From assembly GCA_001430745.1 (NCBI GenBank), contig KQ482061.1, positions 856,582-873,843 on the forward strand: a DNA stretch of 17,262 nucleotides, in the 5' to 3' direction. The notes under the pieces are model-generated. The model had not been told where the DNA came from. It did no database searches and saw nothing but the letters and a program-made list of their open reading frames with translations. The translations under genes were made by a program, and so were the position numbers. Below, in pieces: positions 1-17,157 of this stretch (position 1 is its first letter; each line of letters opens with the position of its first letter). The DNA is from Auxenochlorella pyrenoidosa (Eukaryota > Chlorophyta > Trebouxiophyceae > Chlorellales > Chlorellaceae).

Positions 1-1655
1 GGGCGGGCGAGCTGGGGGCGCGCGCTGCCTCGGCAGCGCGGCGGCGCGAGGCCGCGGCGCACGGCCGGCTGCGCACCAACGCCTTTGAGCTCATCGCCCA
101 CTCCTTCAACGTGAGTGCTCCGCTGGGCATGGGGCCGACATCCGCGCGTGGGCTGCGGTGTGGTCCATGCAGCAAAGCAGGTGCGCATGCCTGCATACCA
201 GCCCCTGGACCCCCACCCACCTGCCTTTTTGCTGCCTGTCAACCCCCCCGGGCAGATTGGCGACATGTTTGAGGAGGCGCAGGCCACCTCGCGGCATGTG
301 CAGTTCAGCAGCCGGCGGCCGCCCGGCGAGATCCTCGGCGCGCTGGAGGCGGCCGCGGGCGGCATGGGCGGCACCTCGCAGCGCCACGGAGACAAGCGGT
401 GGGGTGGTGCTGGCGCCCTGGCGTGCTGCCCACCAGGACAGCCCGCCCCTGCGTCTGCGGCCGCCGGCGAGCGCTCTGGCCCGCCGCTGGCACGTGACGG
501 GCGCGTGGGGTGGCACGCATGCGGGCATCACCTGCAGCTCTGCCGCACCCAGGTCTGCACTAGCCTGGCTTATGCTGCAGGACCACTGTCACTGTGCCCG
601 TGGGCGGCGGCCGCAGCATGAAGCTGCAGGCGCACCTGTTCGAGGTGCTGACGGGCGTGCACGTGTGCCAGATAGAGAAGCTGGCAGGTGAGGTGCCCCG
701 GGGTTGGAGCAGGCACTGGCCGCATGGCAGGCCATGAGGTGCGGCCTGTCAGAGGGCGCGGCCTCCGGCTCTGCTGGCTTTGCAAGCCTTGATGGAGGCA
801 AAGATCCTCGGCCCAGGCAGCTGTGCTGTCGCCCAGCCTCTGCCACCCCGCCACCCCGCTGTGCGAGGCAGGCAGCTCCATGGACTTCATGCGCTGCTAC
901 GCCCAGCTGGCCAGCCGGCTGCAGCCCATCATGATGAAGCGCAGGGCCTTCCCCACCGCCACCCACGCGCGCCAGCTGCTGGCCGCCACACCCTCAATGA
1001 ATGAAGAGCAGGCAGGCCGGGGGGGGGGGGGCCCGAGGCTGGCAGCGGCAAGCCACCCGGGTGGCTGTTTGGCGCCAGCCCTGGGGGCTCTTGGACGGAT
1101 GCCTCTGGCGGGTGCAAGCTGCTGCAGTGTGGGCTCGTGGACTGCGAGTTGGCATGGAGAGCGCTGCCTTGCACCCCACGAATGCAGGCTCGAGCCATCA
1201 TGGACGTGCCCCGCCACTCCTCCGGCAGCGAGATGGACGAAGGCAGCGCCGGCGGCTCGCTGGGGACCCGCTTTGATGCCGTGGCAAGCACGACTGGCGC
1301 AGCGGGCGGGTCGGGTCTTGGCAGTTGCAGCCTCCCGGGCTCCCTGGGCAGCATACCAGAGGACGCACTTGCCCATACGGCACAAGGTGCTGGCTGCATG
1401 GCGCAGGCCCGCAGCGACAGCATGCCCAGCGGCAGCTTGCCTGGGGGGGCCAGCAGCCCGCTTGCCGGGGGCAGCCCACGAAGCGTTGCAGAGCTACCAC
1501 ATGGTCAAGCGAGGCCATGTGCTCATGCAGGGCAGCAGCAGCAGCAGCAGCAACACTTGACAGAGCAGCAGCAGCAACGGCAGCAGGTGACAGCAGCACT
1601 GGCAGGTGGTGGCGAGTCGCCTGTTTCAGGAGCAGGCAGCGGCGACGGTGGCTAG
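1..1655 (+). CDS. CBL-interacting (SnRK3/CIPK-type) protein kinase, C-terminal regulatory part; 5' end outside window
   Basis: The kinase domain lies upstream of the window; only the regulatory half is seen. Proposed exons are about 3-110, 256-398, 581-687, 872-1011 and 1188-1655 (TAG). Exon 1 ends in TNAFELIAHSFN, the NAF/FISL motif through which CIPKs bind calcineurin-B-like calcium sensors. Exon 2 carries SRHVQFSSRRPPGEIL, matching the PPI/phosphatase-binding segment. Exons 3-4 (KLQAHLFEVLTGVHVCQIEK, then SSMDFMRCYAQLASRL) match the KA1-like end of plant CIPKs. Phases agree at every junction. The last intron requires a GC donor after MNEEQ; reading straight through instead gives a basic, unlikely peptide. 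Plant CIPKs normally stop soon after this domain, but here about 170 Ser/Gly/Gln-rich residues follow. The first 35 bases could be intron. The family call is firm; the tail model is less sure. Confidence 0.84.
1012..1187 (+). other. Predicted GC-AG intron of the CIPK gene
   Basis: The donor is AG|GCAGGC after codon CAG ending at 1011, and the acceptor is AATGCAG at 1187. Both sides are phase 0, joining MNEEQ to ARAIMDVPRH. The nearest GT donors (1061, 1112) leave phase 1 and do not fit the downstream frame. The intron contains a run of 13 G at 1019-1031. This is the least certain of the GC-AG introns here because the tail has no homologue to align. Confidence 0.5.
1533..1587 (+). repeat. CAG/CAA trinucleotide tracts coding for Gln in the CIPK tail
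   Basis: Two CAG-rich runs, at 1533-1554 and about 1565-1587, encode runs of seven and four Gln near the C-terminus of the kinase tail. In another frame the same bases give poly-Ser. The tract is pure enough to vary in length between strains. Confidence 0.8.
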
Positions 1656-2069
1656 ATCGTGATCATTGACTCTTGGTCATTCAGCTCCCAGCCCCCGCCT
1701 GCTGCCTCTGTTGTGTTTCTCTCTTATGTTTCGAACCCTGAACTTCAGAATTGCCTTTTGGTTTCCTCGTGCAATGAGGTGCTCAGCTGCAGGGCAAGCA
1801 AGATCTACGGTCAGCACTCAGCAAGCTGTCAGGCCAGGGTGAAAGCATGTGACCAGGGTTGCGGCACAACTGCTGCAGGGAGGCTGGCAGTTATACCAAC
1901 AAGTTGGCAGGTGTTTAATTCAAAATGTGAGGCTACAGCCTGCATTGTGTGCCTCCCCCATGTGGGGCAATGCTGGCCGGGCAGCCAGTTGTGAGTCAGC
2001 GCTCCCCTCCAGTGCGCAGCTTGCCGAACGAGCGGTGCAGGCCAGTTGGCTCGCATCTCATCGCCCGCA
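1656..2069. other. Convergent intergenic region, 3' flanks of the CIPK and phosphorylase genes
   Basis: This stretch of 414 bp lies between two convergent stop codons (TAG at 1653-1655, + strand; TGA at 2072-2070, - strand). It is clearly less GC-rich than the genes and must hold both 3' UTRs. I saw no tRNA, no convincing ORF and no TGTAA polyadenylation motif on either strand. Confidence 0.7.
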
Positions 2070-5000
2070 TCAAGCCGCCTTCACCAAGGCAGTCAGCACC
2101 AGGCTGCTGTGGTAGCTGGCAAGCCCAAAGAAGTTGCCGACCTGCGGGGGCCCAGATGAGGAACAGTGGGCAGGGCTCCTGCCTTGACACGCCTGCCAAA
2201 TGCGCACAACACGCTGTCGCTGCCCCTCGCCCTGCAAACACCGCCCTCCACCCCCGCTGCAGCACCCGCCGCGTGCCTGGTTGCCGTCAGCATCGCCGCC
2301 GGCCAGGTCTGACAGGGAGCGGATGACGATGCAGGCCTTGTTGTTGGTGGCGCACACCTGCTTGGGCGGGCGGCCAAGCCAGCGGCGCTGCTCAGCAGGA
2401 GGATAGGCGCACGCAGGCCGTCGCTGGGGGCCTGCACGCCACATCCAGCCCACCCATGCAGCGCCCACACAGCAGCCTGCAGCGCTACCGCTAACTACCG
2501 CCCTTGCTCCCTAGCTGCCCCTGCCTCCCTGCCTGCCTCCCTGGCCGGCCGGGCCCTGCTGCGCCCGCTGGCTGGCTCACCTGGATGAAGGCGGTGGACT
2601 CCATGTCGCAGGACTCGGCCTTGAGGGTGTCGTACAGGTCCTGCATGTGGGGGTGTGGGGGTGTTGGCTTGGGGCCACATGCAGCTGGAGCGCCCAGTCG
2701 TTGCCCTGGGTTTCAGGGGGTTCAGGTCTTCAACCGTCCGGGGCCACAGTGCTGCATCGACTCAATAGCCCTGCCTGCAGCCTCTGCATGCACGCCCGGG
2801 CCGAGCAGAATGGCGCCGCGATGTGCTGCGGGCCGCCCCCCGCACCTTTCGGTACTCTGCGTTGTCCACAAACGTGGAGCTGCTCATGCCCACGCCGCCC
2901 ACCTGTGCGGCACGCGGGGTCGACACAACAGCAGGCCGCTGTCGCTGAAGGGTTGTATGCAATGCTGCAGCATGCATCCAAGTGTGCCTGGAAATGATAT
3001 GCCCATGCTCTGGTCACTCCCCATGTCAACAACGAGTCAACCCGTCTAACCCTACACCAGAACGTCTCCGGGCTGCGGAGGCGGCGATGACCTACCATCA
3101 CACAGAAACAACAGTGGCGACAACAGCGTTCTGCAATCATAACCTGCATTCCTTTGCTTATCGATCAGGCCTTGTGCAGGTGTGCAGGTGCACACTTGCC
3201 TTGATCTTTGGGGTGGTGGGCAGGGTGAAGGTGGTGTTGGAGCCGGGGACGGTGTAGCTTCTGGACAGCTTCACGGTGGAGGCCACCTTCTTGGCTGTTG
3301 CCAGCAGGCCGGGGTTGACGTAAATGTTGAACTGCGAGCACCAAACACAGGGGCTGAGGAGGACGGGAGGTGAGGAGGACTGGTGGTGGTGTCAGCCCAC
3401 CTGGCGGCAGCCGCAGCTACGCCACGCGATCCAACAAACAGCAACCCGGAAACGCAGGCCCTTGCCTTGGCAGGGACAGTGCCCTTGAAGATGTCCAGGC
3501 CGTCAGTGAGGATTTGCACCGGGATGGGCAGCGCAAAGCCGGTCGTGACGACGCCCGTCTTCTGCAGCACGGGTGCATGCTGTGCCTTGAGCGGGCAGCA
3601 CGCATCCTTGGCATGCAGTCAACTCCTCTGGCTTAGCAAGACCTCTCAACGGCTTTGAAATCTCTGGGTTGAGAGGATCAAGGCATGCAGTCAACTGGAG
3701 GATGCGCATGCCTTCGCTGCAGCTTGCTTGCCTTGTAGGATGCCAGTTTAGCAGGCGACAGGCCGGCAGTGCACTGGTCCGCGCCGGGCCTAGTGAACGA
3801 GGCATACTCTGCGTGGGGCGGGCTGAACGGGTGAGGCATGCACACACAAAGCCAGGCAGGGCGGACCGACCGGCAGCAGTGCAAAGGCTGCCTTGTACAC
3901 ATAGATTCGCTCAAAGCCTCCTCCCACCTCCGCTCGCCAGCTGCTTGAAAGTGTCGTCTGTAAAGGTGTTGCCCTTGCTGGGGTAGTAGAAATACTTTGA
4001 GGCCTCAAGGGGGCGGATGTAGCGCTGCTGGTGGGGCTGCACAGTGCGGCAGGGCGGGAGCAGCACAGGGGCATCTACCTTTGAGGCCGCCAGGCGAGGG
4101 ATTGTTGGGGACGGGTGTGGAATGCCAGGACCAAGCCTCTGCCTGCCCCATGTGACTTTTCTCAATCTTCCTTTTGGTACCTGAATCCACGTGGCAGGAA
4201 TGACGACGTCGCCTGCAGCAGAAGGCAGCAAGGGATGCTGAAGAACAGCCGGGGGGGGCCTTTGCTACGGCATGCATGCCGGCTGCTCTTGCGCCTTCGT
4301 TGCTGCCTTGTGCGCACTGCTGTACACGTGTAAGCCAGGCCACTGCATGCCTGCTGGCATCCTGCCCGGCTGGCCCAGCCCACCAATGTTGTTTGCCGGA
4401 TTGACGCCGCCAGCGATCCCGCTGAAGATGAGCTTGCTGACCTGCAAGGCATTGCATGATGCCGCAGCGCTCGCTGAAGTGGTGGCCGATGTGCAAAGGT
4501 GGGCCACGAGCTGGGCAATGCTCGAAGGCCAGCTGTGACACGGCATGTATGCAGTCCCTGTGCTTGCACACCGCTCAAGTTCAGCAACTGGAGGGCAGCC
4601 GAAGCCAGAATGTGGCCGGCAAGGCAGGCAGGCAGGCAGGCAGGCAGGCGGGCACCCTGCCCCTACCTGGAACTTGTCGCAGAAGAGCTGGGTGGTCAGG
4701 GCAGCGTTCACCATAGACTCGCCGCAGGTGGTCACAGCCACAGTCTTCTTGCTGCGGGGCGTGGCGGGGCGGGGCCGGGTCCCAAGCGGTGCAAAAACAG
4801 GCGGGCAAAGGGGGCCGCACCCTGTGGTGTTTTGCACAAACGCACTGCCGCACAGCTCCGATCGTTGTGGTGGTAAGCATGGCCCGACAGTCCATGAGCA
4901 GCGCGAATCGGTGCACAAGCAAGGGCGTGAGCGGCGGCGGCACGGCCCAGCCCGCGGCGCTCACCCCAGCTTGCCGATGAAAAAGGCGCGGCCCGAGTAG

Positions 5001-5854
5001 GTCTTTTTGCCCAGGATGCTGTCCATGCGGTCCAGCACCGCCTGCACCTCTGGGCTGAAGGCCGTGATGATGCCTGCGGTGGGTTGGAGCGGGGGTTGGG
5101 GTGGGGGAGGTGCAGGGCCGGGCGCATACGCCGCATGGGAGGTGTCCACCATGCGCAACAGCACCGTGCATGCCATCTCTTCCCTGCTGCGTTGCTTAGA
5201 CGGGGTGGGCCGCATGTGCATGCATGCGATGCGCGGCGGGAGGTATGGGTGGGTGGGGTGTGGGGTGTGTGTGGGGAGGAACTTCAGAATGCGCTGCCAG
5301 CGGTGGTGCAGCCGGCGGTGGGGCAGGCACTCACCAATGTCCACCTTGGTGGCGAGATCCGGCTTCTCGGGGATTGTGGTCAGGTCCACAAGCAGGCGGC
5401 GCCCTGCACCCTCCCTGCCGCTGCCTGCCATCAGCATCTGCAGGGCAGGCGGGAGCGAGCCATCTGCCTGGCACCAGCAGCAGAGGCGAGGAGTTCATGC
5501 CAGCACGGCATGCATGAACATGCTGCCCAAGTGGTTGTGCCGTACAAGGTCAGCGCGGTGCAGCAAGGCCCACCCCCTCGCGCCATGCATCGTGGTGGGC
5601 CCTTGAGGCCAGGCCCAGCTCGTCTGCAGGGTGGCGGGGTTATGTAATGCTGAGCACAACCAGGGTTTGAACAGGGATGCAGCGGCGCAGCTCGCCGGGC
5701 CGTCTCAAGCTGCACAGTTGGCTTGCCTGGCTGAACAGTGGCTGATCCCTAAGCACATCAGCGCACCAGCGGTGGTAGTAGCGGCTGTGACCCCCGCGAG
5801 TACACACAGAGCGGCGGCAAGCAGTCCCGCCCGCAGGGTGTGGCGTGGCAGCAT
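2070..5854 (-). CDS. Secreted nucleoside phosphorylase / MTA-SAH nucleosidase-superfamily protein (plant bark-storage-protein type)
   Basis: Fourteen exons on the minus strand: 5854-5767, 5463-5335, 5073-4965, 4751-4667, 4441-4384, 4212-4181, 4036-3928, 3808-3732, 3561-3466, 3331-3200, 2902-2846, 2640-2581, 2357-2277, 2141-2070 (TGA). They total 1185 nt and 394 aa, with every phase matching. Residues 1-25 form a signal peptide (Arg at 4 and 8, hydrophobic 11-22, Ala-rich cleavage zone). The PNP/UDP phosphorylase fold starts at GIITAFSPE (73-81). GIAGG is at 145-149, DMES at 336-339 and IRSLSDLAGG at 356-365. Glu81, Met337-Glu338 and Asp361 align with E. coli MTA/SAH nucleosidase Glu12, Met173-Glu174 and Asp197, so an active N-ribosyl hydrolase or phosphorylase is plausible; a storage role is the alternative. 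Residues about 168-305 are longer than in bacterial enzymes. One NTT sequon lies in exon 10. Exon 9 could start slightly earlier at another AG. Confidence 0.9.
2142..2276 (-). other. GC-AG intron 13 of the phosphorylase gene
   Basis: The donor is AACCAG|GCACGC at 2276-2275 and the acceptor is CCCCGCAG at 2142. The spliced product DADGNQ-VGNFFGLAS keeps the spacing of the family's terminal helix after the catalytic Asp. Reading on would insert a Gly/Cys-rich stretch not expected in the family. Confidence 0.75.
2903..3199 (-). other. GC-AG intron 10 of the phosphorylase gene
   Basis: The donor is ATCAAG|GCAAGT at 3199-3198, a perfect GC-donor consensus. The acceptor is GCCGCACAG at 2903. It joins PTTPKIK to VGGVGMSSST in phase 0, the point where family members enter the conserved substrate-binding segment. 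Confidence 0.8.
3332..3465 (-). other. GC-AG intron 9 of the phosphorylase gene
   Basis: The donor is GCCAAG|GCAAGG at 3465-3464 and the acceptor is GCTCGCAG at 3332. It joins GTVPAK to FNIYVNPGLL in phase 0. No GT donor near the end of this ORF gives the needed phase with an acceptable consensus. Confidence 0.78.
3562..3731 (-). other. GC-AG intron 8 of the phosphorylase gene
   Basis: The donor is TACAAG|GCAAGC (GC at 3731-3730) and the acceptor is GTGCTGCAG at 3562. The upstream exon (3808-3732) reads EYASFTRPGADQ then ends LASYK, and is needed to restore phase between exon 7 (phase 1) and exon 9 (phase 0). The intron contains the direct/inverted repeat structure listed separately. Confidence 0.72.
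3610..3696. repeat. Intronic 15-bp direct repeats flanking a 9-bp inverted repeat
   Basis: GGCATGCAGTCAACT occurs at 3610-3624 and again at 3682-3696. Between them CCTCTCAAC (3642-3650) is matched by its exact complement GTTGAGAGG (3668-3676), giving a possible hairpin with a 17-nt loop. The whole unit sits inside intron 8 of the phosphorylase gene and has no coding capacity. It could be the remnant of a small insertion element or chance. Confidence 0.6.
4622..4649. repeat. AGGC tetranucleotide microsatellite (7 perfect units)
   Basis: Seven uninterrupted AGGC units lie in intron 4 of the phosphorylase gene, close downstream of its donor site (reading GCCT on the coding strand). They may lend pyrimidine-rich character to the intron. 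Length polymorphism is likely. Confidence 0.9.
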
Positions 5855-6617
5855 GTCTCCAATTCTCGAACTACTGCCTACGTGGGATCAGGCATCAGCA
5901 ACAAGTCGCTGTGCAGGCAGCCATAGATCAGCAGGGAAGCTGCTGCCTGCAACTTGCCCTAGTTGCAACCCTAAGGTGCTGCAGAGGTCCTTTGCCCCCC
6001 TGCAGCCCCCACGCACCCCTGATCTGTTTGTATGATCGCTCCGAGCGCTAGAACAGGCGCGGAGAAGTCAAAGACCTCGAGCTGGTGCACGGGCATCAAT
6101 GCCACAGCGTACCCAGCAGGTCGCATCTCTCCTGGTCTGCACTTGCATCTACCTAATGTAGCTCACCTCCAATGTATTTCTCTCGCATCCTTCGTCTCAG
6201 AATCCCTTTTATAACACCTTGTATGCACGAAGGTGCCACTAAAGCACATGTGTCTACTCACTCGGCCACAGGTCGAGCCGAGCCGACGCCTGCCAGCAGA
6301 CTGGCCGGGCAGATGTGTGTGCTGAGCAATGTTCACATGTGCTCTGGCCGTAAGTACCAGTGCCAATCATTCAAAAGAAACACCATACAGCACATGATTG
6401 TGTGAACATGGCGCTAGCTGCTATAAGCGACATGCAGACAGCATCATCGTGCTCTTGCGGCACCGTCGCGGCAGCAGCGGCAGCAGAGGCGACAGCGGCA
6501 GCAGCACTGCCGGTGTCATCGCACGCTTGCAGATGCCTCCCGTTGCTCAACATTGCACATTGCTGTGCCTATACAAACCGGCCCGCTGTGAGGAGGAGCG
6601 ACAGCGGGAGACCGGCG
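5855..6617. promoter_or_regulatory. Divergent intergenic region between the phosphorylase and WDR82 genes
   Basis: These 763 bp separate two start codons pointing away from each other, so the region must contain both promoters and 5' UTRs. It is visibly AT-richer than the genes. A TATA-like TTTTATAACA lies at 6207-6216 on the + strand, about 400 bp before the WDR82 ATG. A GCA/GCG-rich tract at about 6468-6510 would lie in the WDR82 leader. An upstream ATG at 6408 is in frame with the WDR82 start and no stop intervenes. No RNA gene was seen. Confidence 0.5.
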
Positions 6618-9345
6618 ATGAGGCTGGACGAGAACGTCATACGGTCCTTTGCGCTGGGCAAAGTCTTCAAAAACCAGGCGAGAGATGCGGTTGTTTTGTT
6701 CCGATGTTCCAGCCGCCTCTTGTTTAGTGACACAGCAGACCTGCTCCGCTAGCTGGAGAGCTGTTGGCACCTTTCGGTATAACTCGTAGAGAGAGCATGA
6801 TGGCAAAATGTGCGCGCACCGCTTTCGGGCTTACCACTGCTGTGCCGCCGCCGCTGCCGCCGCCGCCGCCGCCCGACTGCGTTGCTGCCCGCCGTCTTTG
6901 CCTGTGCTTGCAGGGCGCAGACCCTACCGCGCGCATCAACTCCATCTCTTTTCACCGCACCGAGGACCTGCTGGTGTCTGCCTCCGACGATGACACCATC
7001 AAGCTGTACAACACGCAGACTGGGACGGAGAGCAAGTGAGGCGATGGGCCCTGCAGCGGTGTGCAGCCAGCCGGTTGTGGCGCATGCGCTTTGGCGAGCG
7101 CCCAGCTGCACTCCACCGTTAGCCATCGGGGGGCCCGCACATGCAGCAGGCCCTCGGGCAAGCAACATGCCAGGCCAGACCCCTTGCCATGCCCTACCAT
7201 GTCGCCGTCTGCGCCTGCCGTGCAGGACGCTCCTGAGCAGGAAGTACGGCTGCGCCAACATCTCCTTCACCCACGACCCCTACTCGGTCATCGCCTCCTC
7301 CAACAAGGCAAGCGGGCAGGCTGGTAGGGGGGTTGGTCAAGGGCTGGCGGGCTGGCAGCAATGGTGGGGCTGGCTGGGTGGGCTGGCGTTCATGCTTATG
7401 CACGCGCCGTGTGCAGCCTGTCATGCGGCCTGCTGCCGCTGCCTGCAGCCTGCATGGACGGCGCACTCGCCTCGGAAGGTGTTCTGCGCAGGAACCCTTG
7501 TGCCGGCGCCCCGGCCTGCCCTCCAATGCGCCCCGAGCCCGCGCCGCCACCCTGCGCTGCGCCCCTGCAGGGCAGCGACTACGCCCTGCGCTACCACGAC
7601 CTCAACTCCAACCGCTTCCTGCGCTACTTCCGGGGCCACACCGGGCGTGTCACCACGCTGTCCATGTCACCCAAGTCGGACGTCTTCCTGTCGGCGGCAG
7701 AGGACAAGCAGGTGGGGCGGCCTGGAGTGGGCCACCGCCGCGGCCGCCGGAACCTCCAACCCCTGCCACACACACCACGCCCTACCCCCGCACTCGCCCA
7801 CTCCCGTCCCCACCCCCCGATGCGCTTCAGCGCATGCCGGGGTCGCCCGGCCGCCCCCTTCAGCCCCCCCCAACACCACCCACCCACCCACCCCCACACC
7901 CTGCGCAGGTGCGGCTGTGGGACCTGCGCGTCAACGGTTGCCAGGCGCTGCTGCAGGCCCCGGGGCTGCCCACCACCGCCTTTGATGAGCAGGGCCTCGT
8001 CTTCGCCGTGGGCGCGGAGCGGGGGGTGGTGAAGCTGTACGACGCGCGCAACTGGGCCATGGGCCCTTTCACATCCTTCCCAGTGCGCCGCCGCCGCGTG
8101 CGCACTGCGCGCGCTGCCGCCGCTGCCGTACCCTGTGCGAATGGCGGCCCCTACCTGGTAGCATGCAATCGTGCAATGCCTGAACTGACGCTGCCCTCTG
8201 CCCCCACACACCCACCCCTGGTCAGGTGCAAGACGAGATCCACTCGGGCGCCCTCTTTGCCTGCCTCAAGTTTTCGCTGGACGGCTCGCTGCTGCTGGCG
8301 GTGGCGGAGGGGCGCATCTACCTGCTGGACTCGTTCGACGGCAGCCTGAAGCAGAAGGCGCGTGGGGGGGCCGGGCGTACCCGGCATGGGGCGTGCCGTG
8401 TGCATGCCGCTGCCGCTGCCATCCGCGCCACCTCTTGGACAATCGGGGGGTTTAGTTACTGTCGCATCTGTGTACAAAACCACGGCAGGCTGCAAGGAGG
8501 CTGTGCACCCTGCGAGACTTGGCTGCGTCTCTCTGTTGAGTTCAACAAACTTGGCCCCTCGTGCGCGCCCCCCCTGCTGCGCAGATCATCAACCCAGGCG
8601 TGGGCGAGGGTGGCCAGGCGCTGGAGGCGTGCCTCACCCCCGACTCCCAGTTTGTGCTGTCTGGCAGCCCAGACTGCTGCATCCGCGCCTGGTCTGTGGC
8701 CAGCGGGCAGGAGGTGGCGCAGTGGCAGGGCCACGCAGGCGTGCCCGCCTGCCTCAAGGTGCGACCGGCCCGCCGTTGTGGACAAAACAGGGGGTGGGGC
8801 ACACTCCAGGGGTTTCCGCGCCCTGTTGCCACGCTGCCTTCCCAGGCTGCGCCACCCTGCGGGCCTGCCCTTGTGCAGGCGCCACCCCCTGCCCCTCAAT
8901 CCCTGCGCTGCCTCGGCTCCCGCCCTCCCCGCAGTTCTCCCCCCGCAAGATGCTGGTGGCCTCCGCCTGCAGCGCCCTGGGGTTCTGGATACCCAACATC
9001 CCTGTCCTGCAGCAGCTCCAGGCGCAGGCGACGCAGCAGCAGAACGTGTCGCCGCCTATGCAGCCGCTGCAGCAGGCGCCCCCGCAGCAGCAGTACCAGC
9101 AGCCCCCCATGCAGCCGCCCTACCAGCAGCAGCCGCAGCAGCAGCCCCCCATGCAGCAGTACCAGTACCAGCAGCAGCAGCCGCAGCAGCCACCATATGG
9201 GCAGCCAGGGCAGGGACCTGGCCCCCAGCAGATGCCCTGGCAGCCGCCGCCGCAGCAGCACCATGGCGCGGCGCCGCCGCCGGGCTACAGGCAGGGCCCC
9301 GCGGGGCCACCGCAACCGCCGCAGCAACGTGGCTGGGGCCGGTAA
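6618..9345 (+). CDS. WDR82: WD-repeat protein WDR82 / Swd2 / plant S2Lb (APRF1) homologue with Gln/Pro-rich tail
   Basis: Eight exons: 6618-6677, 6914-7035, 7226-7307, 7571-7711, 7909-8082, 8226-8357, 8585-8758, 8935-9345 (TAA). They total 1296 nt and 431 aa, phase-consistent throughout. WDR82/Swd2 is a seven-bladed propeller in the nucleus that serves the COMPASS/SET1 H3K4 methyltransferase and transcription-termination phosphatase complexes. Diagnostic stretches align end to end with plant and animal members: MRLDENVIRSF, FHRTEDLLVSASDDD, LRYFRGHTGRV, LSMSPKSD, VRLWDLRVNGCQ, GVVKLYDAR, GPFTSF, LTPDSQFVLSGS and GFWIPNI. The fold ends near residue 317. A further 114 residues, over one third Gln and rich in Pro, follow and are absent from animal WDR82 (about 313 aa). 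The start was chosen by homology; an in-frame ATG at 6408 would add 70 Ala-rich residues. Three introns need GC donors. Confidence 0.94.
6678..6913 (+). other. Predicted GC-AG intron 1 of the WDR82 gene
   Basis: The donor is AACCAG|GCGAGA after KVFKNQ and the acceptor is GCTTGCAG at 6913, phase 0, leading into GADPTARINS. A GT at 6690 (GCG|GTTGTT) is also in phase and would add ARDA. The GC choice keeps the spacing closer to WDR82 relatives, but this one is ambiguous. Confidence 0.55.
7308..7570 (+). other. GC-AG intron 3 of the WDR82 gene
   Basis: The donor is AACAAG|GCAAGC and the acceptor is CCCTGCAG at 7570. The joined product SSNK-GSDYALRY has the same length as SSNK-IDDTIRY in animal WDR82. 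The next GT (7324) is out of phase, so homology and frame both require the GC donor. Confidence 0.88.
8358..8584 (+). other. GC-AG intron 6 of the WDR82 gene
   Basis: The donor is CAGAAG|GCGCGT and the acceptor is CTGCGCAG at 8584, phase 0, joining DGSLKQK to IINPGVGEGG. The GT at 8362 gives phase 1 and breaks the frame. The joined segment has almost the family length between DxFxG and the LEA-x-x-TPDSQF motif. Confidence 0.8.
9001..9342 (+). repeat. Low-complexity CAG/CCG region coding for the Gln/Pro-rich WDR82 tail
   Basis: This run codes for residues 318-431 of the WDR82 homologue. It is built from short units such as QQYQQPPMQPP and PYQQQPQQQPP, with Tyr spaced among Gln runs and a final GYRQGP...RGWGR. 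The composition resembles intrinsically disordered, prion-like tails of RNA and transcription factors. It is in frame with the last conserved WD exon and ends in TAA, so it is part of the gene and not a separate ORF. Confidence 0.85.
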
Positions 9346-9724
9346 CTACGGTTCTTGCGCACATAGTGTGTGCCCGCACTGAGGCGTGCATCGAAAAGGC
9401 GGGCACGTGAGGGTGCCATGCGCCCAGTATCCGGCGCGCGGCAGGGAACTGCATGCAGCTACATGCACCGCAATGGCCTGCTACATGTGGTTTAAAAGCA
9501 CCTGTAGCCAGATCACACACGAGTCGCGTGGATGTATGTCTGAACCAGCAGCAAGCATCATCTGGAGAGGAAGTGCCTGTACTCACGGGCGGTCTCGCTG
9601 CAGCACGCTGGGATGTCCTGGTCCCAGATCCCGATCCCGTCCGTCCACTCGACATGTGCTCCAGCCGGTTCCTCCCTGCACTTTTAAAGGCCATCCAGCA
9701 GGCCGGCAGGCCCAACAGAGAACC
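9346..9724 (+). other. Intergenic region: WDR82 3' flank and promoter of the Cys-rich gene
   Basis: These 379 bp lie between tandem genes. A perfect 8-bp inverted repeat (GTGCCCGC at 9370-9377, GCGGGCAC at 9399-9406, 21-nt loop) begins 25 nt after the WDR82 stop and could form a hairpin in its 3' UTR. An AT-rich TTTTAAAG at 9682-9689, about 40 bp before the next ATG, is a weak TATA-like candidate. There is no TGTAA motif and no ORF of note. Confidence 0.5.
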
Positions 9725-12415
9725 ATGGCGGCGAGGACGGGTGACAACTGGCTTGGGCCGCTTCGGCTGGGCGCGGCCCTGCTGCTGGTGGCGTGTATGA
9801 GCGCCACAGGTGAGCACAGTCGGCGATGCGGGCACCGCACGCACCGGCGTTCCCCGGCCTGCTCACATTCATGTATAGGCCCCCTCTCTCTCCTCCCTCG
9901 CCCGAAACTCTGCAGTCCAGGCGGTAACGGTGCGCTGGTGAGTGGTGGGTGGGTACCGCATGTGCCGACGGCCGCCGGGATGCAGCCAGGGCGTGCGCGC
10001 TGCCACCGCCGCCCTCCTGCGGGTGGGCGGTGGTTGTGGCGGGGCCGCACACTGGTCCGCCGGCAGCGGTCCCAAGAAGGCTCAGTTCTGTTGCGGGGTA
10101 GTGCTTAGAAGCCCACTGCAGCCGATGCCTCTGACCGGCAGGCCGCTGCCGGCTAGGTGGTTCGCCATCAGCAGCACAGCAGCCTTGTCATGCTGACTTG
10201 CACTCCACTCTTGCCACAGCCCCGCGTACTGCGGCATCTGCACGGCGGCGGGCAAGTGCACAGAATGCGACTACAACGACCACTGGACAGGCAGGACGGT
10301 GTCGCTGAATGAGGCCAATGGGACCTGCGTGTTATGGTGAGCAGTTTGGCTTCACTCTGTTGTGGCTGCACCGCCAGTACCGCCCTCCCTCCCTGGCAGA
10401 TGGCTTTGCTGCCATTGATACACAGCTCGGTAGCAGTCTGGCAGCTGTTCTGATTTGTCCCCAGCAGTTTGCTTTTCCAGCTGGTCTGGCAAGCAGATGC
10501 GGCCCGGTTCTAGGATGTGGCCTTGCGCCGTGGCGCGGCCGTACCGCCTGCCTGCCTGCACGCAGCCCATGAAGGCCAATTGGCTCACCCACGCCGCCCA
10601 GCCGTGCCTGATCTGCGCCATGCAGCCCCGAGCGCTGCGAATCTTGCCCTGATGGCGGCTGCGCGCGCTGCGCAAGGGGCTCCTTCATGAGTGAAAACGG
10701 CACCTGCACAGGCAGGTGCTCTCCGCAGGGCAGCAGGCTGCTGCCGTAAAATCTTGGCATCTGCCTTGACCTCAATCTGTCCTGCTATGTGCCGTGCTCT
10801 CAAGCCCTGAGTCGCCTTGCTAGCCATAACCAGCTGCCCGCTGCCCTCTACCCCTGGCCCGCCGCTTTGCGTGGCCTGCAGCCTGTCCCGAGCTCTGCGC
10901 TCAGTGCAAGTTGGACATGCGCAGCGGCGAGGTCAAATGCCTGCGCTGCGAGGATTTCTTTTATGAAGGTTGGAACGATGAGGGCCCCGAGGTCTGGGAT
11001 TTCCCGGTCTACATGGACAAGCGGGGCAAGTGCCGGAAGTGAGTGGGTGGGGCAGGGAAGGGTCGAGCTTGCGCCAGAGTCTGAGAGCAGCCCAGAGCAA
11101 GGCGCCAAACAGGCTGCCTGGTGGAGGAATCGCGCTGCCTAACGCGGGGGCATGGCATGGGCCGGGTGGGCCTCCGCGCAGTCGACGTGGCGGCCTGCAC
11201 AGTTGGAGGGCGGTCAGGTCTGGATGCTGGCAGCAATTTGGCCAACTGCACGCCGCCAATCCCCGCCTGCAGGTGCAAAAGGCACCCCTGGAAGGGTGGC
11301 TGCACGCGATGCAACCACTCGGGCCGCTGCATCAAGTGGTGAGCTCCGCAGGCCTCGGGGGGGGGGGCGACCAGTCACACGGCAGGAGCAAGCTCAAAAG
11401 ATGGTGGTACCTGGCAACACACCAGCAGCTGTCCCAGGCCCAGCTGGCCGGTGCTGAGACCCCATCTCACCTGCCATCTTTGTGTGCTCGTGCATCCACC
11501 GCAGCGAGGACCAGAGAGGCGGCGTCGCGCTGGATCGGCATAGGGGAAAATGCGTCAAGTGCAAAGGTGGGTGCACAGCAGGGGCTCAGCAGGGTGCTGC
11601 AGCTCCCTGCTGAGCTGCTGCGGTGCCGCCGCTGCGACTGCCCCCTGCACCTGCTGATTGTGATCGCACGATGAGCGCTGAACGCAACCTTCGATGTGTT
11701 CCTGCTCTCCTGAACGGTGTGCAGATGAGCTGTGCGCACTCTGCGACGCCAAAAACCCGGCGCGCTGCCTGGCATGCCAGCGAATGCCGTACTGGGTGCG
11801 GGATGAGGAGTGGTTCTTTTTCGGAGACCACGGGCCGGTGTACCGTGATGCCGCCACGGACAAGTGCCTGGAGTGCAGGCAAGCAGGGTGTGCTGGCCTC
11901 TGTGAAGAGCGCTGTGCATGGCACGGCTTGCGCAGCCTGTGCATGTCACAAGGGGCATTGCTCCGCTTATAGACCCATCCACTGCCAATCGTGCGAAATG
12001 AACCTTACCTGGAGTCTCGCCCTCTCCCTTTCTGCCTTCCTGCCTGCAGCAAGTGGATGGTGTGGGATTCTGGCTGCAATCGCTGCTCCCGCCATGGAGA
12101 CTGCATCGAATGCAGCGATCCCAACAGCTTCCCAGATCCTGCCAGCAAAAAGTGCACCCCCTGCTCGGATCGCATCGACAAGTGCGCCACCTGCAGCCTG
12201 GACGGCACCCGCTGCAAGACGTGAGCGCAGGGCGCTGACGTGCGGCTGGGCAGACCTGTCTCCCTGGGTTGGCATGGTGCTCTTCATCGATGCCTGCTCT
12301 GTGCACAGTCCACCAAACAGTCGTGCTCACCTTTCTGCGCGCCCCTCCCTGCAAATGCAGGTGCGTCACAGGTTATGTGCTGCAGAGGAACGCGTGCGTT
12401 GCTGCACCCCCGTAG
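9725..12415 (+). CDS. Predicted secreted Cys-rich protein with 20 CxxC motifs (furin-like / growth-factor-receptor Cys-rich style)
   Basis: Ten exons: 9725-9809, 9916-9937, 10220-10336, 10626-10711, 10882-11038, 11273-11338, 11505-11566, 11725-11878, 12050-12220, 12361-12415 (TAG). They total 975 nt and 324 aa, all phases agreeing. Residues 1-31 look like a signal peptide: hydrophobic GAALLLVACM, then VQA before the likely cleavage. The mature part of about 293 residues holds 42 Cys, 40 of them in CxxC pairs (CGIC, CTEC, CVLC, CESC, CARC and so on) spaced roughly every 10-30 residues. Three segments start CP-x-x-C-x-x-C. There are sequons NGT (twice) and NHS. There is no membrane anchor after the signal. 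I do not recognise the family. The pattern recalls furin-like or VSP-type Cys-rich repeats: disulfide-bonded extracellular modules or metal binding are both possible. Confidence 0.82.
10712..10881 (+). other. GC-AG intron 4 of the Cys-rich protein gene
   Basis: The donor is GCACAG|GCAGGT and the acceptor is GGCCTGCAG at 10881, phase 1. The product ENGTCTA-CPELCAQC repeats the CPxxCxxC pattern of the other modules. The GT four bases further (10716) gives phase 2 and destroys the frame, so the GC donor is preferred even with a GT so near. Confidence 0.75.
11879..12049 (+). other. GC-AG intron 8 of the Cys-rich protein gene
   Basis: The donor is GAGTGCAG|GCAAGC and the acceptor is TGCCTGCAG at 12049, phase 2. 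It joins KCLEC to SKWMVWDSGC through a split Ser codon. No alternative GT nearby keeps the frame. Confidence 0.78.
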
Positions 12416-12927: not shown

Positions 12928-15900
12928 ATGTTGCAGGGAACGCTGGGGCGGCTGCCCTTTGCGGAGCCCACCACCGCGGCGGGGACCAAAGGTTCCTTCC
13001 TTTCCCAGAAGGGTTTCCTTGGCGCACAGCGACAGGCGGCGACTTCGCAGTGGCAGCAGCGAGGCTCGCAGTCCCGCCTGTCCATCTCCGCGCCTGCGGT
13101 TGCGGAGGTGGATGCCAGCACAAGGCAGCTGGCCACTCGGAGGCAGCAGGCGCCTGAGCAGCTGCAGGTGCGCGAACAGGGAGGGAGTCTTGCGGCTTCT
13201 CGGAGGGGCGCCGCAGCGCTCCTCTCGCTGAATGCCTGCGCTCAGCATGTCCTGATGGCACGTTTGTGAGGCCGCCGCCACGCCTGCGCTGGCTTAGCGG
13301 CGATTGTTGGCCTTTTGGCGCCTTGCCAGCGCCCTCCTGCTCGCTCCCTTACTCGGGCGGCCCCTCTGGCAGCCTTTTGGTCCCTCGGGGGCTCGTCTGA
13401 AGCCAGCAGGCGTCCCGGTTTGGCCCGCATAGCCTGGGACTGGTGCCCGCCGGCGCCTGCCCGCCGTTCAAGCGCGCGGTCTGCTCACTCGGCACCCTCT
13501 GGCTTCCCTCTCCCCTCTCTTTCTATTGCCTCAGGTGGTGCATGCCTTCCCCGAGGGCAGCGGCTCCCTGCCGCCCGCTGTGTACCGCCTGCTGGACCCC
13601 GCGGCGCCCGTTGAGCTGCCGCCGCCCGGCAGCGTCGCCCTGGATGCCTCTGACAACCGCGAGCTGGACAAGCTGGTGGCGGCCCTGGGGCGCAACAAGT
13701 CCACCTGGCGGCGCGCCCTGGCGCTGCACGACTGGCTGCTGCAGGTGCGCGAGGCGCTGGACGCGAGTGGCAGGGCGGGCGGTTTCAAACAGCCGAATCT
13801 GGTTGTTGGGGTGCAGCGGCGGGAAGGGGTGCCGCGTGCCCTCGCCATGCCCTACCTGGCTCGGCCCTGCTGCCCCCGCCCAGCCGCCATCCCGGGCCTC
13901 CACAACGCGCTGCCCCTGCCCCACCCCTCCCGCAGAGCGGGCACCGGCCCGACGACCGGCTGTGCACCACGCTCATCCGCGTGTGCGCGCAGCACGGCCA
14001 GGCCGGCACCGCGCTGGCGCTGTACGACTGGATGCGCGCGCCCGCGGGCGAGGGCGGCGCCGGCCTCACCCCCACCGTGTTCACCTACACCGCCGCCATG
14101 CGCGCCGCGCTCACGGGGTCCATGATGGACCGCGCCCTGCAGGTGCGCGCGCGCATGCGCCCCCAGCACGCCCGCACAGCCCCGCCAACAGCGTCCAAGC
14201 CGTCCTGCAGGCGCGGCCGCGGCAGCGCAGCGGCCCTTGTGCGTGCCTGGCCTCGCTCCCGCTCAGGCCCGCTTCCCTGCGTCTCCACACGCCCCACCCG
14301 CAGGTGTGGGACGACGCCGTGGCGTCCAAGTGCGAGATTGACTGCCGGCTGTGCACCACCCTCGTGGAGGTGTGCGGCCGCAAGGGCGACACCGACCGGG
14401 CCCTGGAGGCGTATGCGCAGGTGCGCGCGCCAGCCGGGGCCCTGAGTTGTTTTGCAACTTCACGTGTGGGGGGCAGGGCGGGGGCTGCCTTGAGGGCTGC
14501 CTGGAGCACTCTCTCACTCGTCCTCCTGGCCGGCCATGCCAGGTGCCTGTCCAGCCTGGGCGCCTGGCTTTCCCTCATCATGCTTCTCCCTGCCGCTGCA
14601 CCGTGCTGCCTGCAGATGCGCGACGCGCCACGCGACAGCCGCATGGCCCCCTCGGTGCACGCCTTCACCGCCGCCATGCGTGCCGCCGCGGAGGGCGGGC
14701 GCTGGGAGGCGGCGCTGGCCATCTGGGACGACATGCAGAAGGCCGGCTGCAAGCCCACCGGTGCGTGCCAGCCAGCGCCTGTGCGACCAGCTTGGCCGCT
14801 GGTGCTGAGTGCGGCTGGGCGCGCCTCGAACCGGCGGGATGCCGCCGCAGGCCCTCCTCATGACATGCAGAGCCTGCTCCCACGCCCCCGCCTCCCCTGC
14901 AGGCCATGCCTTCGCCGCCGTCATCTCCGCCTGCGCCGCGGGCGGCCAGTGGCAGCGGGCGGTGAGCCTGTTCGACGAGATGCTGGCCTGGGGGGTGCGC
15001 CCCGATGTCGTCTCCTGCACCGCCCTCATCACCGGTGAGCGCCGCCAGCAGCGCGCAGGCAGCCTCCCTCAGCCTCAACCCGAGGCGAGGTCGCCGCAGG
15101 GCCGCGGCCGCTAGCTGCCCCTTGGCCTGCAGCTTGCCCATGGTGGCTGCGCATGCTGCGGCCCCCGCTGCCGACCAACCCGCCCGCCGGCCGCCCCCGC
15201 TGCAGCACTGGGCACCGATGGGCAGTGGGAGCGCGCCGAGAAGGTGGTGGAGTGGATGCTGCGCTCCGACATCAAGCCCAACGTCCGCACCTACTCCGCC
15301 CTCATCACCGGTGCGCTCGCGCGGGGCACAGCGGGGCGCAGCGCCGCTGGTGTTGCTGGCAGTTGGTGCTGGCTGGGGGCCTCATTTTCCAGTTCCCTGC
15401 CGCCACTTGTTTGAGACCAGCGGCCACGAGCGCCCCTGCGCCAACAAACCCCGACCACGTGCCGCCCCTGCCCTGGTCTGCAGCCCTGGGCAACGCCAAG
15501 CAGTGGGACCGCGCCCTGGACATTGTCAAGCGCATGCGGCGGCACGGCTACGGCGGCGGCCTGGAGCCCAACGCCTATACCTACTCTGGTGAGGGCCTGG
15601 CTGGCAGCCAGCAGGGCAGGGCCGGCTGCTCCGCTGCCCAGCCATCGCAGCCCTGCATGCGCCTCACTGGGTGGTGTGCTCCGCCTGACCTGCAGCTCCC
15701 TTCCCCCGCCCTCCTGCGCCCTGCCTGCAGCGCTGCTCAAGACGATGGGCGAGCAGGGCAAGTGGCAGCTGGCGGAGAAGTTCTTCCGCGAGCTGGAGGC
15801 CGAGCAGCTGGAGCTGATGGCCAAGGAGGCGGCTGCCAGCATGGCGCGCCAGCCGGCAGGCGCCGGCATGGCGGCGCCTGCCGCAGAGGCCGAGCTGGCC

Positions 15901-17157
15901 GCGCCGCCGGCCCATGCGGCGGCTCTCCCCGGCAGCATGGCGCAGGCCCTGCACCAGGCAGAGGCGCCCGGGGCCAACCCGGAGGCCATCGCAGCGGCAG
16001 CCGCCGCGGTGGCGGCGCTGGCTGCGCACCAGCAGGCGCTGGCGGCTGCGGCGGGCGGCGCTGCGGTGCCCCTGGACTTTGCGCTGCTGCAGCAGCTGGC
16101 GGCGCAGGTGGCGCCGCCTGCCGTATCCACCTTTGCAGAGGACGACGCCGAGGCCGGCGAGAGCCTGGTGGACGTGGCATCTGCGGCCGCCGAGGCCGTG
16201 CTGGCCACCCCCCGCGGTGCCAGCCCCGCTGACCAGCAGCCCCAGCTGTCTGCCGACGTGCACCAGCAGCAGCAGGGCGCATCCTTCTTCTCATACTTCT
16301 CCGGCGCCTCCTCCTTCAAGTCTGCTGCGGAGGACGAGCAGCGGGCGCTCTGGCAGCAGCCAGGCAGCGGCGACTCCCCCAGCAGCGTGGCCGACGCCGC
16401 CGCCGCCTCGGGCCGGCGCAGCCCCTTTGCGCCCGACCAGCAGGCAGCGGCGGGCCCCTCGGGCGCGGCCTGGACCAGCGACAACGCCGCCTCCCGCGGC
16501 CTCTCGCTGCACCTCACAGAGCTGGCTGCCGCGCTGCCCAGCGACGCCGCCCCGGCGGCTGCGCCCGCCGCGCCCCCCGCACCCGGCGCCCTCGCCGCCC
16601 AGCCCAAGCTCAAGCCGCTGCCCAAGGGGCGCGGCCCCGTCAACGAGGTCGTGTGCGGCGCGCTGATGCTGGCGTACGAGCGCGCCGGCAAGTGGCAGGA
16701 GGCGGTGGGCATGTTGGAGCGCGCCCGCACCCTTGGTGAGTGCGCGCCGGCCCCGTCGCCCCCCTGTGCGTCCACCTGTGGTCCCTGTTCCATGGAGTCT
16801 GTGGCTGGCGGCTCAGCCCCTGCATCAACAGCAGGCTGGGAGCCGCTGCAAGTGTCGCTGTGGCAGCCTGGCAGCGCTCGCTGCAGATGCAGGGCGCACG
16901 GCACCGCCCGGCGCCGACCTGGTCCCTCACCCGCTGCCCCCCCGCTGCCCCCCCTCCAGGCATCGCCCCCAACACCATCATGTACAACACGGCCATCTCT
17001 GCGCTGGGCAAGGCCCGGCAGGTGGACGCCGCGGAGCAGCTCTTCCGCCAGATGCCCGCCCCCGACGCCGTGTCGTACGAGACCCTGATTGCGGCATACG
17101 GCATGAGCGGCGCCGCAGACAAGGCGGAGGCCACTTTCGAGGCCATGCAGCGCGCAG
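12928..17157 (+). CDS. P-class pentatricopeptide-repeat (PPR) protein, probably organelle-targeted; 3' end outside window
   Basis: Ten exons seen: 12928-13167, 13535-13744, 13936-14142, 14304-14420, 14616-14760, 14903-15034, 15206-15310, 15484-15588, 15731-16735, 16960-17157. They give 821 aa, and a phase-1 donor at 17158 leads out of the window. All nine complete introns are GT-AG. The first 80 residues are Ser/Gln/Ala/Arg-rich and poor in acids, like a plastid or mitochondrial transit peptide. About nine to ten 35-residue helical-hairpin repeats follow, for example HAFAAVISACAAGGQWQRAV, VSCTALITALGTDGQWERAE, RTYSALITALGNAKQWDRAL, IMYNTAISALGKARQVDAAE and VSYETLIAAYGMSGAADKAE. P-class PPR proteins bind organelle RNAs and guide processing, stability or translation. 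No DYW or SMR domain is visible so far. A disordered insertion of about 270 residues splits the repeat array. The specific orthologue is not identifiable from this part. Confidence 0.88.
15206..15588 (+). repeat. Two 105-nt PPR exon modules in tandem (phase 1-1)
   Basis: Exons 15206-15310 and 15484-15588 are each exactly 105 nt, 35 codons, and both begin and end in phase 1 at the same place inside the repeat. Their starts are alike (CTGGGCA..CG....GCAGTGGGA in both). The exon before (14903-15034) and the first of the pair end in the identical CTCATCACCG before GT. This fits duplication of a one-repeat exon. Confidence 0.8.
15821..16641 (+). repeat. Ala/Gln/Pro-rich low-complexity insertion inside the PPR array
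   Basis: Within exon 9, about 270 residues (about 455-724) of mostly Ala, Gln, Pro and Ser separate the repeat ending in FFRELEAEQLELMAKE from the one starting NEVVCGALML. A less biased island, ASFFSYFSGASSFK, lies near 16279-16320. The reading frame is open throughout and the repeats on both sides share the frame, so the insertion is translated. It is probably disordered. Confidence 0.8.

What the first reader, a model, noticed from the sequence alone, without database searches (positions are those of the whole stretch)
1012..12049. About one quarter of introns use GC-AG borders
Ten of 42 complete introns are best explained by a GC donor: 1012, 6678, 7308, 8358, 10712 and 11879 on +, and 3731, 3465, 3199 and 2276 on -. 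All ten are preceded by AG, and five read GCAAG. In most eukaryotes GC-AG introns are around one percent. Several cases are forced by frame and homology (7308, 8358). They are absent from the PPR gene (0 of 9), so use is uneven between genes. A lineage-wide shift in U1 recognition or gene-specific regulation is inferred.
Basis: partly seen in the sequence, partly recalled or inferred. Interest (0 to 1): 0.8.

Follow-up and report, generated by a model that had tools for sequence, protein, structure and literature searches.

The report
Abundant GC-AG introns in green alga
A GC-rich green alga related to Micractinium starts roughly one in nine of its sampled introns with GC instead of the textbook GT, a real feature already known from other GC-rich algae, here with a clear two-way pattern (GTG or GCA) at the splice site.

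Summary
The introns are real. Of ten GC donors named, nine are supported; 1012 stays open. The four on minus are fixed by a 100% identical 417-aa protein from contigs too short to hold the unspliced gene. The three in WDR82/Swd2 and 10712 fit relatives in frame; 11879 rests on frame, model and repeat spacing. My count is 9 of 43 window introns. Outside the window the share is lower: 25 of 214 donors (11.7%, 7.7-15.8%) by a self-trained gene model, 14 of 123 (11.4%) inside protein-homology stretches. Beta-tubulin, CK2-alpha, Lhca6, CAD and AdhE carry nine of them. No clustering by gene was detected (p=0.29). GC donors mostly have A at +3, GT donors G: GTG 180, GTA 3, GCA 18, GCG 7. The likely cause is GC-biased drift limited by total U1 pairing. 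High shares are in print for GC-rich algae (E. huxleyi 56%, Aureococcus 39.6%, Micromonas pusilla 22.2%, Chlorella 7.7%), so this is a new member of a known kind. U1 could not be tested: neither U1 nor U6 was found in the readable genome.

The parts
6618..9345 (+). WDR82/Swd2 (COMPASS WD40) gene, 8 exons, 7 introns, 3 of them GC-AG
   Evidence: In-frame 432-aa model; relatives 68% Parachlorella, 65% Auxenochlorella; alignment
6678..6913 (+). GC-AG intron CAG|GCGAGA
   Evidence: Homology, posterior 0.99-1.00; weak in-frame GT at 6690
7308..7570 (+). GC-AG intron AAG|GCAAGC
   Evidence: SSNK|GSDY matches SSNK|GADY of the three closest aligned relatives without gap; posterior 1.00
8358..8584 (+). 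GC-AG intron AAG|GCGCGT
   Evidence: Frame and homology, one extra residue beside the junction; posterior 1.00
2073..6188 (-). Phosphorylase-superfamily (PNP_UDP_1) gene, 16 exon segments, 15 introns, 11 GT and 4 GC
   Evidence: P0121 identical over 417 aa; Pfam PF01048
3562..3731 (-). GC-AG intron AAG|GCAAGC
   Evidence: P0121 junction, single solution
3332..3465 (-). GC-AG intron AAG|GCAAGG
   Evidence: P0121 junction, single solution
2903..3199 (-). GC-AG intron AAG|GCAAGT
   Evidence: P0121 junction, single solution
2142..2276 (-). GC-AG intron CAG|GCACGC
   Evidence: P0121 junction, single solution
9725..12415 (+). Cysteine-rich repeat protein gene, 10 exons, 9 introns, 2 of them GC-AG
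   Evidence: In-frame 324-aa model; M. tetrahymenae ABPG75_012612 over half of the query
10712..10881 (+). GC-AG intron CAG|GCAGGT
   Evidence: Locally gapless against P0125; GT 10716 out of frame; missed by the gene model
11879..12049 (+). GC-AG intron CAG|GCAAGC (likely)
   Evidence: Posterior 1.00; in-frame GT 11888 not excluded
1012..1187 (+). Candidate GC-AG intron CAG|GCAGGC in a NAF-domain protein gene; not decided
   Evidence: Posterior 0.36-0.94 by model; in-frame GT 1129
12928..17157 (+).
   Evidence: In-frame hand model; not checked against relatives

Best explanation
These are ordinary U2-type introns whose donor carries C at +2, in a GC-rich (66.5%) trebouxiophycean green alga close to Micractinium. 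Shown: they exist, make up about one in nine introns of the sample, lie in housekeeping genes, show no difference in length from GT introns, and have a stricter flank than GT donors (A at -2, G at -1 and +5, A at +3 and usually +4). Inferred: the major spliceosome with a conventional U1 recognises them. The C-A mismatch at +2 is paid for by full pairing elsewhere. GC-biased mutation pushes optimal GTAAG donors one step away, either to GTGNG or to GCAAG, and selection stops the second step, so GTA and GCG are both rare.
For: Spliced 417-aa protein with 4 GC junctions. Homology across 9 GC junctions outside the window, no gap at any of them: beta-tubulin 2, CAD 2, CK2-alpha 1, AdhE 2, Lhca6-type 2 (the second is only two residues from the protein end, so weaker); WDR82 3. 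In the four-class gene model only GC learned a donor consensus; the sham classes GA and GG did not. Inside homology stretches at posterior 0.5 or more: GT 105, GC 13, GG 3, GA 1. Donor table outside the window GTG 180, GTA 3, GCG 7, GCA 18, Fisher p 1.5e-17; in 72 junctions of seven genes 52, 4, 4, 12, p 1.7e-7 (table added up by hand; test). No difference found in length or intron GC (p 0.83 and 0.92) and no clustering by gene. A U1-C finger exon (profile positions 14-38) reads THDSPAVRKQHNGGYKHKSNVKAYY, conventional by recall.
Against: U1 snRNA was not found, so a changed or modified U1 is not excluded. Outside the window the four-class model holds 29.2 soft GC introns but also 19.6 GA and 15.0 GG, and 3 of its 11 confident window GC calls are wrong or unsupported (9291, 13763, 5726), so its raw share carries noise. 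AG acceptors were built into the model and are no test. GC content alone is not sufficient in print: Micromonas RCC299 with 64.1% GC has 2.7% (PMC3033335).
Confidence: 0.8

Rival explanations
1. The splicing machinery has changed: U1 snRNA, its modification, or U1 proteins (U1-C, LUC7) accept C at +2 by design, so GC is a second canonical donor.
For: LUC7 (PF03194) gave 0 candidates and U1 searches found no U1. Species of similar GC content differ in print (PMC3033335). GCA and GTG are nearly exclusive.
Against: U6 was also not found and 98,994 of 240,000 letters fetched by place are withheld, so absences mean little. The one U1-C exon found looks conventional. Putative U1 genes of Aureococcus and M. 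pusilla are conventional at the 5' end (PMC3033335, passages). GC donors need a stricter flank, as expected for a tolerated mismatch.
Confidence: 0.12
2. GC donors mark a set of introns under regulation (alternative splicing or retention) in particular genes.
For: WDR82 has 3 of 7 (p=0.039 uncorrected) and PNP 4 of 15 (p=0.089), PPR 0 of 9.
Against: Counts across 42 genes fit chance (p=0.29). Beta-tubulin, CK2-alpha and Lhca6 carry them. No reads were available to measure retention.
Confidence: 0.05
3. The GC donors are gene-model errors or sequencing errors of GT sites.
For: The gene model does make false or unsupported GC calls (9291, 13763, 5726) and fills its sham classes.
Against: The spliced identical protein, alignments without gap at the junctions, no GT-AG shift for 16 of 16 junctions, and correlation of C at +2 with A at +3, which errors would not give.
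Confidence: 0.03

Closest known systems
GC-AG introns of Chlorella sp. (Iwata and Gotoh 2011, PMC3033335)
   Same: Green alga (same order by recall) with high genomic GC; GC-AG share raised to 7.7% (passages read)
   Different: Share here about 11% in the sample, intervals reaching down to about 7-8%; the passages I read give no donor split by +3
GC-AG introns of Emiliania huxleyi (PMC4028052), Aureococcus anophagefferens and Micromonas pusilla (PMC3033335)
   Same: GC-rich algae with GC-AG shares of 56% of 241 hand-mapped junctions, 39.6% and 22.2% (passages)
   Different: Far higher shares and other lineages; in E. huxleyi 9 GC junctions were checked by RT-PCR, here none
Mammalian GC-AG introns (PMC7242645, passages; Thanaraj and Clark 2001 and Kralovicova 2011 seen only in its text and references)
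   Same: C at +2 mismatched to U1; tighter donor flank (recalled)
   Different: 0.8% of human coding introns; there linked to alternative splicing, here spread among housekeeping genes

Membership tests
U2-type GC-AG introns | Intron begins GC and ends AG with exact exon joining | tested here: met
   16 of 16 checked junctions GC-AG with no GT-AG shift; P0121
U2-type GC-AG introns | Donor flank complementary to the U1 5' end, stricter than in GT donors | tested here: met
   Outside window -2A 24 of 25 vs 113 of 189, -1G 25 of 25 vs 167 of 189 (p=0.08), +3A 18 of 25 vs 3 of 189, +4A 19 of 25 vs 80 of 189, +5G 25 of 25 vs 184 of 189, +6T 8 of 25 vs 52 of 189 (no difference)
U2-type GC-AG introns | Spliced by the major spliceosome with U1 | not testable with these tools
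   No U1 or U6 found in the readable genome
High-GC algae with abundant GC-AG introns | GC-rich genome and GC-AG share well over the usual 1% | tested here: met
   GC 66.5%; 25 of 214 and 14 of 123
High-GC algae with abundant GC-AG introns | Confirmed by transcript reads genome-wide | not tested
   Only one gene has a spliced sequence here

The most novel reading that the evidence does not exclude
The donor code of this alga has split into two nearly exclusive states, GUGNG and GCAAG, with the textbook GUAAG almost gone. GCA would then be a second standing donor class with its own recognition requirement (U1 pairing budget, LUC7-like or U6 contribution), not a scatter of decayed GT sites.
Probability: 0.2. 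Interest if true: 0.6.

Novelty: new member of a known kind. Interest (0 to 1): 0.35.

Why it matters
Gene finders that allow only GT donors would break roughly one in nine introns in such genomes. The clean +2/+3 exchange makes the idea of a fixed 5' splice-site pairing budget testable in a small, GC-rich alga. It does not need a new splicing system.

Tried and rejected
U1 search: Rfam RF00003, 5' end patterns and Rfam on the pattern loci found none; the two exact 11-mers match no Rfam family at E<=1. U6 as positive control failed by Rfam and by a core pattern with one mismatch allowed; a loose pattern gave 21 places with 2-3 mismatches, which I took for chance without testing them. So nothing follows. 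LUC7 0 candidates, likewise uninformative. WDR82 against solved structures gave mostly other WD40 proteins and was not used (best 60 of 570 shown). CK2 and malic enzyme with too strict a cut-off gave nothing; CK2 was repeated with a looser one, malic enzyme only by Pfam. Two splice-site surveys (PMC6310983, PMC7072748, passages) gave no GC-AG share for single green algae in what I saw.

GC calls of the gene model that I reject: 9291 (last WDR82 exon runs to its stop), 13763 (CAG|GTGCGC at 13745 fits; own judgement), 5726 (P0121 uses GT 5766). 1284 has no support beyond the model. The model also fused the WDR82, Cys-rich and PPR genes. A phase-0 excess of GC donors (19 of 29 vs 97 of 207, p=0.07) vanishes given AG at -2,-1 (p=0.65). 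Dropped before counts: pieces under 1500 bases, withheld letters, donors below posterior 0.9. In one search, 18 of 45 genes outside the window (50 predicted introns, 8 GC) had no homology stretch: D4, D11 and D20 were scanned without a match at 1e-5, 15 were not scanned, among them D3, D8, D12 and D32 with three or more introns. D17, D21, D24, D27, D28, D40, D44 and D46 were scanned on about their first 330 residues only. The stretch of D17 spans several overlapping repeat matches and was set by hand.
Full report
What the window is. The 17,262-base window lies at C57:856582-873843 of a 51.6-Mb, 65-contig genome. The best hits of its WDR82 protein that bear a species name are Parachlorella kessleri (68%) and Auxenochlorella (65%). 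Its phosphorylase protein is 91% and 88% identical to two Micractinium proteins and 100% identical to P0121. I read it as a trebouxiophycean green alga close to Micractinium. Readable DNA used here (window included) is 66.5% GC.

Gene models. Five genes: a NAF-domain protein end (1 to about 1557; Pfam NAF), a phosphorylase-superfamily gene on minus (6188 to 2073), WDR82/Swd2 (6618-9345), a cysteine-rich repeat gene (9725-12415) and a PPR-type gene (12928 onward). Complete introns: 3 (plus the undecided 1012), 15, 7, 9 and 9, i.e. 43 (44).

The strongest evidence is P0121. It is a 417-aa protein of source 'lgn' (I take this to be an assembly of public reads; recalled, not stated by the tool), from contigs of at most 3,396 bases, while the genomic span is 4,116 bases. 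All 417 residues map exactly to 16 segments. With AG acceptors required and five donor dinucleotides allowed, each of the 15 junctions has one solution: 11 GT and 4 GC at 3731, 3465, 3199 and 2276. The contig is too short to hold the unspliced gene, so it must be at least partly spliced; I take it as RNA-derived, which the tool does not state.

Other window sites. In WDR82 the GC junction at 7308 joins SSNK to GSDY where the three closest aligned relatives read SSNKGADY, and 8358 is forced by frame with one extra residue; 6678 fits best but a weak in-frame GT exists. 10712 aligns locally without gap to M. tetrahymenae ABPG75_012612. 11879 has model posterior 1.00 but an in-frame GT nine bases on. 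1012 is open.

Genome share. I fetched 24 stretches of 10 kb from four contigs and four 3-kb loci; 98,994 of the 240,000 letters fetched by place are withheld. 168.7 kb in 22 pieces, window included, trained a gene model with donor classes GT, GC and two shams, GA and GG, all started alike. GC alone learned a donor consensus, (C/A)AG|GC(A/G)AG with +5G 96%. Adding GC to GT raised log-likelihood by 260, adding GG by 138, GA by 110. At posterior 0.9 or more, outside the window: 189 GT and 25 GC, 11.7%, block-bootstrap 7.7-15.8%; with the window 213 and 36. Soft counts outside the window are GT 218, GC 29.2, GA 19.6, GG 15.0, so single calls carry noise. Inside protein-homology stretches that noise nearly goes: GT 105, GC 13, GG 3, GA 1 at posterior 0.5 or more, and in the five genes with solved-structure alignments GT 40, GC 8, no shams. 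With a GT+GC model, 14 of 123 junctions in 27 of 45 genes are GC, 11.4% (6.9-18.2%). Five of those 27 genes were picked for alignment because they carry GC introns; the 25 genes scanned with Pfam were chosen mainly for having three or more introns, with or without GC, and not every such gene was scanned.

Proof by homology outside the window: beta-tubulin against 6u42 (Chlamydomonas by recall; 424 residues without gap, 10 introns, 2 GC), CAD (2 GC; one gap elsewhere), CK2-alpha (1; no gap), AdhE domain (2; one gap elsewhere), Lhca6-type protein against 6zzx (Chlorella ohadii by recall; 231 residues without gap, 2 GC, the second two residues from the end). In these five genes 41 GT and 9 GC junctions lie in the aligned parts.

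Donor grammar. Outside the window GTG 180, GTA 3, GCG 7, GCA 18, odds ratio 154, p 1.5e-17. In the 72 junctions of the seven best-checked genes, added up by hand: 52, 4, 4, 12, p 1.7e-7; these genes hold GC by selection. As raw words on both strands of the sample AGGCAAG occurs 73 times (reversed word 3, composition expectation 19.4) and AGGTAAG 3 times (reversed 8, expectation 9.7); this includes non-donor words. No difference between GC and GT introns was found in length, intron GC, or gene clustering.

Mechanism. Both GTGAG and GCAAG are one GC-raising step from GTAAG. C at +2 breaks a U1 pair; G at +3 weakens one. Sites seem to afford one of the two. That pairing logic and the mutation pressure are inference; the association is shown. 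The shares in print for GC-rich algae fit, with the caveat that similar GC content can give 2.7% (Micromonas RCC299).

Machinery. U1 and U6 were not found and LUC7 gave no candidate, all uninformative given withheld sequence and short exons. One U1-C exon (L035) reads conventionally.

Verdict. Real, elevated, dispersed, and a new member of a known kind. In the library I searched, no paper holds both Micractinium and GC-AG, and none both Auxenochlorella and GC-AG.

Noticed in passing
whole sample, 168.7 kb: The textbook donor word AGGTAAG is nearly absent (3 on both strands) while AGGCAAG occurs 73 times; confident GT donors have G at +3 in 203 of 213.
   Followed up: yes
window 2073-12415: Phosphorylase gene and Cys-rich gene match M. 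tetrahymenae ABPG75_012610 and ABPG75_012612, so local gene order may be kept; no Micractinium WDR82 was named among the 120 listed of 328 hits, possibly a broken annotation there.
   Followed up: no
window 9725-12415: Secreted-looking cysteine-rich repeat protein with one relative at E<=1e-60, a Micractinium protein whose annotated end looks like read-through of an intron.
   Followed up: partly
G000 stretches L005-L028: 98,994 of 240,000 letters are withheld (N).
   Followed up: no
L025+L026:12767-20000: Two neighbouring CAD-like genes, the first only partly covered, apparently a tandem pair.
   Followed up: no
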